From the NCBI RefSeq assembly GCF_030177895.1, contig NZ_CP123448.1, positions 62,001 to 126,000 of the forward strand: DNA of 64,000 nt. The letters run 5' to 3'. Position 1 is the stretch's first letter, and each line of letters starts with the position of its first letter. The notes beneath the pieces were generated by a model. It saw only the letters and a list, made by a program, of their open reading frames with translations, did not search any database and was not told where the DNA came from. The position numbers and the translations under genes are program-made. This document shows, piece after piece, positions 55,189-56,878 of this stretch. Source of the DNA: Kingella negevensis. Lineage in GTDB: Bacteria; Pseudomonadota; Gammaproteobacteria; Burkholderiales; Neisseriaceae.

Positions 55189-56878
55189 ATGCCTATTTTG
55201 GATTGGAACAACAAAGCAGATGCGATAAAAGCGGCGAGCAAAAGCCCTTATCGCTTATTGATTGAAAATGCTGAATATTCTTATAGCACAGCCAGCCAGC
55301 CAGCCAGCCAGCCAGCCAGCCAGCCAGCCAGCCAGCCAGCCAGCCAGCCAGCCAGCCAGCCAGCCAGCCAATTATACAGAAGATTTAATTAAAAATCAAA
55401 TATCTACAGATAATCTCATCATTCAAGGCGACAATTTGGACGCTTTGAAATCTCTGCTGCCGTTTTATTCAGGCAGTGTCAAATGTATTTTTATTGACCC
55501 ACCGTATAACACGGGTTCGGCGTTTTCTCATTATGATGACAATTTGGAACACAGCTTGTGGCTGAATATGATGTATCCGCGCTTGGAATTGTTGCGCGAA
55601 TTATTGGCGGAAGACGGCAGCATTTGGATTACGCTTGATGACAACGAAAGCCATTATTGCAAAGTGATGTGTGATGAAATTTTTGGGCGGAATAATTTTG
55701 TGGCGAATGCTATTTGGGAAAAGAAATTTTCTCCGCAAAACGATGCCAAATGGTTAAGCGACAATCACGACCATATTCTCTGCTACGCCAAGAATAAAGA
55801 AAAATGGCGACCTAATTTATTACCACGTTCAGCAGAAGCACTTTCATCTTATAAAAATCTTGATAACGACCCACGCGGTTTGTGGACAAGTAGTGATTTT
55901 TCCGTCAAAACCTATAATTCTGAATACGATTATCCAATTACAACACCATCAGGAAAAATTATAAATCCTGCAAAAGGTAGATGTTGGCAAACAAATAAAG
56001 CCGCTTTTCAAAAATTAGTTGATGATAATCGCATTTGGTTTGGTAAAAATGGGGATAATGTTCCGCGTGTTAAAAAATTTCTTTCCGAAGTTAAAGATGG
56101 AGTTACTGCTTTAACCATTTGGAAATACACCGAAGTCGGACACAATCAAAACGCAAAAAAAGAAACCAAAGAATTTAATTCTGATGAAGTTTTTGACACG
56201 CCCAAACCCGAAGCCTTATTACAACGAATTTTGACACTCGCCTCCAACGAACACGATTTAGTCCTAGATAGCTTTCTCGGTAGTGGCACAACCGCCGCCG
56301 TTGCCCACAAAATGAACCGCCGCTACATCGGCATTGAAATCGGCGAACACGCTAAAACCCACGTTGTGCCACGCCTGAAAAAAGTGATTGACGGCGAACA
56401 AGGCGGCGTTTCAGGCAGCCTGAATTGGCAGGGCGGTGGCTCATTCCGTTTTTGCGAATTGGGCGAAACGCTGTTTGATGAATACGGTTCGCTCAATGCT
56501 GCTGTGAAATTTGCGGATTTGGCGGCGTATATTTGGTTTTTACGCACTAAACAGCCGAGTAGGGTGGGTTTTAACCCACGCGATAAAACTGAAAATGGTG
56601 GGTTAAAACCCACTCTACAAACGCCAACGCCACTCATCGGGGTGCATCACAACACGGCTTATTATCTGCTTTACAATGGCATTTTGGGCGATAAACGCCC
56701 TGCGTTTGGTAATGTGCTGACACGCAAAATTTTGGCGGAATTGCCTGATTTGGCAAAACATTTGGCAGACGGTTTGAATATTGTAGTGTACGGCGAAGCG
56801 TGTCGCGTGAGTGATGAAACCTTGCAGGATAACCGCATGACGTTTAAGCAAATTCCGTATCACGTTACGGATAAATAA
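55189..56878 (+). CDS. mod: Phase-variable type III DNA methyltransferase (Mod), out of frame here
   Basis: Mod is the adenine methyltransferase and specificity subunit of a type III system. The natural start MPILDWNNKADAIKAASKSP at 55189 leads into (AGCC)20 and then stops at 55392. The catalytic body is in the next frame: NLIIQGDNLDALKSLLPF, DPPYNTGSAF (motif IV), a central target-recognition region and FLGSGTTAAVAHKMNRRYIGIE (motif I), the beta-class order. Loss of one AGCC unit, or gain of two, joins them into about 560 residues. With 20 units the body could be read only from TTG 55262 or ATG 55268, which lack a ribosome binding site. A 60-bp palindromic repeat is inserted in frame at 56559. 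res follows 10 bases later. Confidence 0.93.
55290..55369 (+). repeat. Tetranucleotide tract (AGCC)20 in mod
   Basis: Twenty perfect AGCC units near the 5' end of mod, encoding a QPAS/ASQP-type repeat. Slipped-strand changes of one unit shift the frame, the known mechanism for phase-variable mod genes in Neisseria and relatives. Confidence 0.97.
56559..56618. repeat. GTAG-headed paired palindrome inserted in mod
   Basis: Starts GTAGGGTGGGTTTTAACCCA and ends TGGGTTAAAACCCACTCTAC. The 60-bp length is a multiple of three, so the frame is kept and about 20 residues (SRVGFNPRDK ... LKPTL) are added C-terminal to the motif I region. Confidence 0.8.

What the first reader, a model, noticed from the sequence alone, without database searches (positions are those of the whole stretch)
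55189..56878. Type III mod gene with 20 AGCC repeats is out of frame from its natural start
The family-like N-terminus (ATG 55189) and the catalytic body lie in different frames on either side of (AGCC)20. Losing one unit or gaining two fuses them. This is a candidate phasevarion switch: switching Mod on would change methylation, and so expression, at many loci. In the present state, the body is reachable only from TTG 55262 or ATG 55268, both with poor initiation context, so low-level expression is possible.
Basis: partly seen in the sequence, partly recalled or inferred. Interest (0 to 1): 0.78.

Follow-up and report, generated by a model that had tools for sequence, protein, structure and literature searches.

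The report
Repeat-switched DNA methyltransferase gene in Kingella
A Kingella-like bacterium carries a DNA-marking gene whose reading frame depends on the length of a four-letter repeat, a known kind of random genetic switch, and its repeat ends in an eight-letter sequence that also turns up next to repeats of several types in other genes of the same bacterial family.

Summary
Confirmed. (AGCC)20 lies at 55290-55369. The conserved N-terminus (ATG 55189) closes at 55390-55392; the type III Mod body lies in another frame up to 56878. An intact-looking Res gene follows. Relatives show both states: 34 and 7 units in frame; 24, and by inference 5 and 2, out of frame. N-terminal codons show selection in the ATG frame and recognition regions are allelic. 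In 30 of 30 tract-free loci where the N-terminus was found it is in frame with the body, so the repeat was gained later. The gene is not ModA by PADLOC model; orthology to K. kingae ModK is unresolved. The switch is a new member of a known kind; effects on methylation and expression are untested. New observation: the octamer AATTATAC after the tract also follows AGCC, ACCGA, ACCGC and ACGC tracts in several Mod settings, read in different frames: exact at 15 of 21 tracts in Neisseriaceae Mod loci, 1 of 20 in Pasteurellaceae. How many ACCGA or ACGC tracts lack it genome-wide was not searched. Cassette or functional element is open.

The parts
55189..55287 (+). Conserved N-terminal segment of the Mod family (MPILDWNNKADAIKAASKSPYRLLIENAEYSYS), in the frame that closes at 55390-55392
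55262..55270 (+). Alternative starts of the body frame: TTG 55262 and ATG 55268
55290..55369 (+). (AGCC)20 tract, the frame switch
55370..55377 (+). AATTATAC octamer abutting the tract, shared with other repeat tracts in Neisseriaceae
55371..55399 (-). Antisense promoter-like site TTGATT-17-TATAAT pointing into the tract; 10 of 12 matches, support weak
55370..56878 (+). Catalytic body of the type III Mod (PF01555; PADLOC PDLC03644)
55496..55507 (+). Motif IV, DPPY
55730..56269 (+). Target recognition region (body residues about 120-300), allelic among relatives
56273..56293 (+). Motif I, FLGSGTT
56889..59558 (+). Res subunit, 889 aa; PTGGGKT, DEAH and PDF..EYK are seen in its sequence

Best explanation
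[quoted passage not shown] Shown: the tract, the frames, the conserved N-terminus, the intact-looking Res, relatives in both frame states, allelic recognition regions, and tract-free relatives with the N-terminus in frame. Inferred: that the tract changes length often in this strain, that full-length Mod appears only in one of three tract states, that Res cannot act without Mod, and that toggling changes genome methylation and with it expression of some genes. The sampled copy is in a state in which only an N-terminally shortened Mod could be made, at low level if at all.
For: Tract and frames. PADLOC type III Mod E 7.2e-182 and Res E 9.8e-194, Res matched over 3-890 of 898. L090 with 34 units and P0007 with 7 units in frame; L096 with 24 units out of frame. 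Over the three pairs of window, L090 and L096, the 80 nucleotide differences in the first 96 nt fall 28, 12 and 40 at codon positions 1, 2 and 3 of the ATG frame. N-terminus in the same frame as the body in 30 of the 30 loci among L001-L080 where it was found, two of them by partial matches (L021, L071); the other 50 gave no N-terminal match or no usable body match. Blocks of the recognition region 13-60% identical to L096, flanked by blocks of 83-100% before and 100% at motif I. Open res frame beside mod in G066, G029 and G011. Precedent in K. kingae: modK with AGCC units, 13 ON and 12 OFF (PMC8953716, passages).
Against: No reads or isolates could be examined, so change of unit number in this strain is not shown. 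P0001, from a named K. negevensis genome and 99% identical over 94% of the query, implies only 2 units, too short to slip often, and P0074 from the same named species has an altered, early end, so some strains seem to have lost the switch or the gene. The body frame has its own ATG, so the present state may not be fully off.
Confidence: 0.85

Rival explanations
1. Not on-off but two-form: in the present state the body is made from ATG 55268 (or TTG 55262) and is active, and tract change only adds or removes the N-terminal segment.
For: Body frame open from ATG 55268. Three relatives are listed from a start in this frame just before the tract (P0001, P0010, P0014). The body alone matches PDLC03644 from position 29 on.
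Against: The N-terminus is kept in frame in 30 of 30 tract-free loci where it was found and shows coding constraint in the tract-bearing group. No clear Shine-Dalgarno before 55268 (my reading).
Confidence: 0.2
2. The switch serves defence only: turning restriction on and off against phage and incoming DNA, with no regulon.
For: Res is intact-looking here and open res frames lie beside mod in three relatives; the operon is not beside ubiB in the three genomes nearest by UbiB, as expected of a mobile defence operon.
Against: A paper states that every methyltransferase shown to phase-vary was also shown to control a phasevarion (PMC7394358, passages). The two roles do not exclude each other.
Confidence: 0.3
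3. The unit number 20 is a sequencing or assembly artefact.
For: Long tetranucleotide tracts are error-prone (general knowledge); reads were not available.
Against: Two relatives carry similarly long tracts at the same place (34 and 24 units).
Confidence: 0.05

Closest known systems
ModA of Haemophilus and Neisseria (phasevarion mod)
   Same: Type III Mod, AGCC tract in the 5' coding part, allelic recognition domain, octamer AATTATAC after the tract (modA2 primers in PMC5466613 contain it too, passage).
   Different: Best PADLOC model PDLC03635 (one modA, L159) against PDLC03644 here; about 35-43% identity; different N-terminus; octamer read as Q-L-Y-T there and N-Y-T here.
ModK of Kingella kingae
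   Same: Genus (here probable) and AGCC unit; 13 units ON, 12 OFF agrees with in-frame at 1 modulo 3 (PMC8953716, passages).
   Different: Sequence not seen. The rule 1 modulo 3 also fits a modA (L073, 7 units), so it does not decide.
P0007 and the G029 Mod (L090)
   Same: Same Mod group, same linker, AGCC tract and N-Y-T or octamer after it, in frame.
   Different: Other recognition regions; 7 and 34 units.
N. animalis Mod (P0038) and the related G011 Mod (L089)
   Same: Same Mod group, same linker; in L089 the N-terminus is out of frame.
   Different: Tract in L089 is C12, not AGCC.

Membership tests
Phase-variable type III mod | Type III Mod with catalytic motifs | tested here: met
   DPPY and FLGSGTT present
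Phase-variable type III mod | Simple repeat in the reading frame whose length sets the frame | tested here: met
Phase-variable type III mod | Unit number differs between isolates | tested here: inconclusive
   20 here against 2 implied by P0001 of a named K. negevensis, and 34, 24, 7, 5 and 5 in other relatives; no isolates of one strain compared
Phase-variable type III mod | Res partner | tested here: met
Phase-variable type III mod | Allelic recognition domain between conserved ends | tested here: met
Phasevarion regulator | Switching changes methylation and expression of many genes | not testable with these tools
   needs long-read methylation calls and transcriptomes
ModA | Belongs to the ModA sequence family | tested here: not met
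   best model PDLC03644, not PDLC03635
ModK of K. kingae | Orthologue by sequence | tested here: inconclusive
   ModK sequence not seen and the original paper not held; no K. kingae name in the listed hits

The most novel reading that the evidence does not exclude
AATTATAC is a common 3' part of simple repeat tracts at Neisseriaceae type III mod genes, independent of repeat unit (AGCC, ACCGA, ACCGC, ACGC), Mod family and reading frame. Either a small repeat-plus-flank cassette has moved between genes with the repeat unit later exchanged, modA being a possible donor, or the octamer has a function at the tract, for instance as an antisense -10 box (TATAAT) or an easily opened stretch.
Probability: 0.45. 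Interest if true: 0.72.

Novelty: new member of a known kind. Interest (0 to 1): 0.5.

Why it matters
The switch adds a probable phase-variable Mod, in a group separate from ModA, to a Kingella-like genome; K. kingae is reported to tie toxin and heat-shock expression to such a Mod. The shared octamer, if it holds up, bears on how genes become phase-variable: repeats would be acquired with a ready-made flank, or need a flank to work, rather than growing anew each time.

Tried and rejected
Chance for the tract: rejected. Chance for the octamer: about 2.4e-5 at a fixed place; the idea is post hoc, but the rate was then checked in loci fetched by Mod similarity alone. The octamer as a need of AGCC tracts in general: rejected. 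In Pasteurellaceae AGCCx4+AATTATAC is in 3 of 140 genomes, each at a modA, while 13 of 140 carry AGCC tracts of 5 or more units; flanks of most but not all of those tracts were read. Outside the family the pattern was in 1 of 369 genomes sampled from the class, again a modA. Two AGCC units plus octamer is no proof by itself: three of four viral contigs with it have it in genes without a tract, and G051 has two such 2-unit sites beside an insertion-sequence-like gene. The octamer as native protein sequence: rejected for this Mod (NYT in 4 of 4 QPA-bearing and 0 of 119 other Mod hits among the 123 of 175 that show the motif), likely native in modA, possible in the two glycosyltransferase types, where NYTI or NYTV leads into a plausible strand. 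Antisense promoter: a -35 of at least 4 of 6 at 13 of 26 tract-borne against 9 of 43 tract-free octamers, and 4 of the 9 tract-free sites in L081-L193; sites not independent, none in modA: weak. Empty chromosomal site: not found; neighbours of ubiB differ in the three genomes nearest by UbiB. Structure prediction did not finish. K. kingae as the source: unlikely, since the window has 117 kingDUS cores and 1 king3DUS core and Frye et al. give king3DUS for K. kingae (PMC3630211, section 6); the DUS dialect of K. negevensis was not checked.

Full report
Observation. The window holds (AGCC)20 at 55290-55369. Upstream, ATG 55189 starts a segment that reads through the tract and stops at 55390-55392. 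Downstream, a 538-codon frame from TTG 55262 (536 from ATG 55268) runs to 56878.

What it encodes. The body is an N6_N4 methyltransferase (PF01555, E 2.6e-53), best PADLOC model PDLC03644 type III Mod (E 7.2e-182, matched from profile position 29). The next gene, 56889-59558, is a type III Res, matched over positions 3-890 of 898 (E 9.8e-194), with PTGGGKT, DEAH and PDF..EYK visible in its sequence. In G066, G029 and G011 an open res frame of 885-913 codons, stop to stop, lies beside the related mod. In the three genomes nearest by UbiB (G083, G067, G066) the 12 kb fetched around ubiB match neither mod nor res nor the other window neighbours tried, so the operon is not at a site shared by these.

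Organism. The window carries 117 copies of the kingDUS core and 1 of the king3DUS core, both strands; Frye et al. give king3DUS for K. kingae (PMC3630211, section 6). The only 99% match is a Mod named Kingella negevensis (P0001), and the shortened P0074 bears the same name. I call it Kingella, probably K. negevensis, not proven.

Natural states. In the same Mod group, G029 (L090) has 34 units with N-terminus and body in one frame, and G066 (L096) 24 units out of frame. P0007 (7 units) is in frame; P0001, P0010 and P0014 imply 2, 5 and 5 units and begin as M-AQPA in the body frame. Unit counts from proteins are inferred from residues, and assemblies from short reads probably favour short tracts, so this is no unbiased sample. 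P0074 begins late and has an altered C-terminal end.

Is the N-terminus real? Among window, L090 and L096 the 80 pairwise differences in 96 nt fall 28, 12 and 40 on codon positions 1, 2 and 3 of the ATG frame. So the segment is kept as coding sequence although it is out of frame in two of the three copies. The tract was therefore probably inserted in a linker of an ancestral repeat-free Mod. The G011 relative carries C12 at the same linker, also out of frame, and 5 of 123 Mod hits that show the following motif (of 175 held) have a poly-proline linker consistent with such a C tract: the linker seems to have gained repeats at least twice.

Alleles. Against L096 the blocks of 30 residues are 83, 97, 100 and 90% identical over residues 1-120, fall to 13-60% over residues 120-300 and return to 100% at motif I. 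P0010, P0014 and L090 show the same drop. This is the allele pattern described for modA (PMC3311624, passages).

Mechanism. The best reading is slipped-strand phase variation of Mod in a type III system. One of three tract states gives full-length Mod. The state sampled here leaves ATG 55268 as a possible start of a shortened Mod; I see no Shine-Dalgarno for it. Whether the shortened form works is open. The phasevarion step rests on analogy: K. kingae modK (AGCC, 13 ON and 12 OFF, with toxin and heat-shock genes responding) is described in PMC8953716 (passages); the original paper is not held. Sequence motifs do not tell m6A from m4C in type III Mods (PMC8259958, passages).

Relation to known families. 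The modA tested (L159) has another best model (PDLC03635). K. kingae ModK could not be compared; no K. kingae name occurs in the best 120 hits of the whole-protein search or of the search with residues 41-180, but only about a quarter of hits carry names and the lists are capped.

The octamer, AGCC tracts. The tract is followed at once by AATTATAC. The same octamer follows AGCC tracts of modA, where it is read Q-L-Y-T and seems native, since modA relatives with CTCAG units have CAATTGTACAC there, and of Mods with two other best PADLOC models in G058 (3 units) and G082 (one extra base). It also follows AGCC tracts of genes in G067 and G083; one gene of each was checked and is a family 2 glycosyltransferase. 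In 83 Neisseriaceae genomes two AGCC units plus octamer occur at 14 sites in 11 genomes, the reversed control at none; the two G051 sites have 2 units only and may be chance. Of 16 AGCC tracts of 5 or more units in these genomes, which I counted from the per-genome numbers with flanks carry it and 6 do not (two in G011, one each in G014, G023, G026, G041). Two of the 10 (G066) are identical ends of two contigs and may be one locus.

The octamer, other units. ACCGA plus octamer is in 9 of 83 genomes, ACGC plus octamer at 4 sites in 3 of 83, ACCGC plus octamer in G014 (L107); how many tracts of these units lack it genome-wide was not searched. In the ACGC and ACCGC cases read (L107, L111, L116, L231, L233) the open mod frame begins after the tract, so there the tract lies in a short leader frame. 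In Neisseriaceae loci fetched only by Mod similarity (36 loci), 15 of 21 tracts of at least 3 units of 4-7 nt have the octamer exactly and 3 more with one mismatch; L084, L087 and a 3-unit TTGT run lack it. In the Pasteurellaceae counterpart (30 loci) 1 of 20 has it exactly, a modA, and 1 with one mismatch; these 20 include short chance runs and tracts at contig ends. The script took the better strand for each tract in both sets. The Neisseriaceae Mods fall under best models 03634, 03635, 03641 and 03644 in the cases scanned. Several tracts are homologous within a family, so independent cases number about five Mod settings and two glycosyltransferase types, not 15.

How to read it. Coincidence is unlikely (about 2.4e-5 at one fixed place). 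Protein constraint fails across families because the frame differs (N-Y-T, Q-L-Y-T, I-I-H). A moving cassette with later exchange of the unit, or a functional octamer, remain. The antisense strand reads TATAAT, and TTGA at spacing 17 is found in the window, L096, L083, L101, L111 and L233 among others, but not in modA, G058, G082 or the glycosyltransferases. Against tract-free octamers the excess is modest (13 of 26 against 9 of 43), and 4 of the 9 tract-free sites in L081-L193 score as well, so I hold this lightly. I found no description in print; the searches were in the open-licence library only. Of their hits I looked at passages of PMC5466613, where the octamer is part of modA2 primers, PMC2651432, PMC3311624 and PMC5953494, and none of the passages shown discusses it; PMC9592894, in the list, was seen in passages on ModK; the rest were seen in listing only.

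Verdict. The finding is real and of a known kind. Its surprise lies in the octamer shared across repeat units and genes.

Noticed in passing
window 56564-56613: An inverted repeat (GTGGGTTTTAACCCAC and its near copy) lies inside the mod coding sequence, in frame; P0001 has nearly the same residues there, other relatives differ, as if a small element had been absorbed.
   Followed up: partly
L089 (G011) linker; P0002, P0003, P0006, P0038, P0088: A C12 tract, or a poly-proline linker consistent with a C tract, sits at the same linker where the window has AGCC.
   Followed up: partly
window, whole: DUS dialect is kingDUS (117 cores) with almost no king3DUS (1), unlike the dialect reported for K. 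kingae.
   Followed up: partly
window 55371-55399, minus strand: Antisense promoter-like site pointing into the repeat; similar sites at several other tracts, control only modestly different.
   Followed up: partly
L195 (G109), L198 (G129), L202 (G193), L194 and others: AGCC tracts in Pasteurellaceae genes other than modA, some resembling type I restriction-modification genes by eye, with other flanks.
   Followed up: no
L128 (G023:C23): A second modA-like 5' part with (AGCC)14 and a different flank, near a contig end.
   Followed up: no
L167 and L168 (G066 contigs C29 and C46): Identical N-terminus plus tract near the ends of two contigs: one locus split by assembly, or two copies.
   Followed up: no
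P0074: A 338-residue Mod named K. negevensis with an altered C-terminal end, so some strains may have lost the gene.
   Followed up: no
window 49023-49055: A 15-base unit repeated 2.2 times, exact.
   Followed up: no
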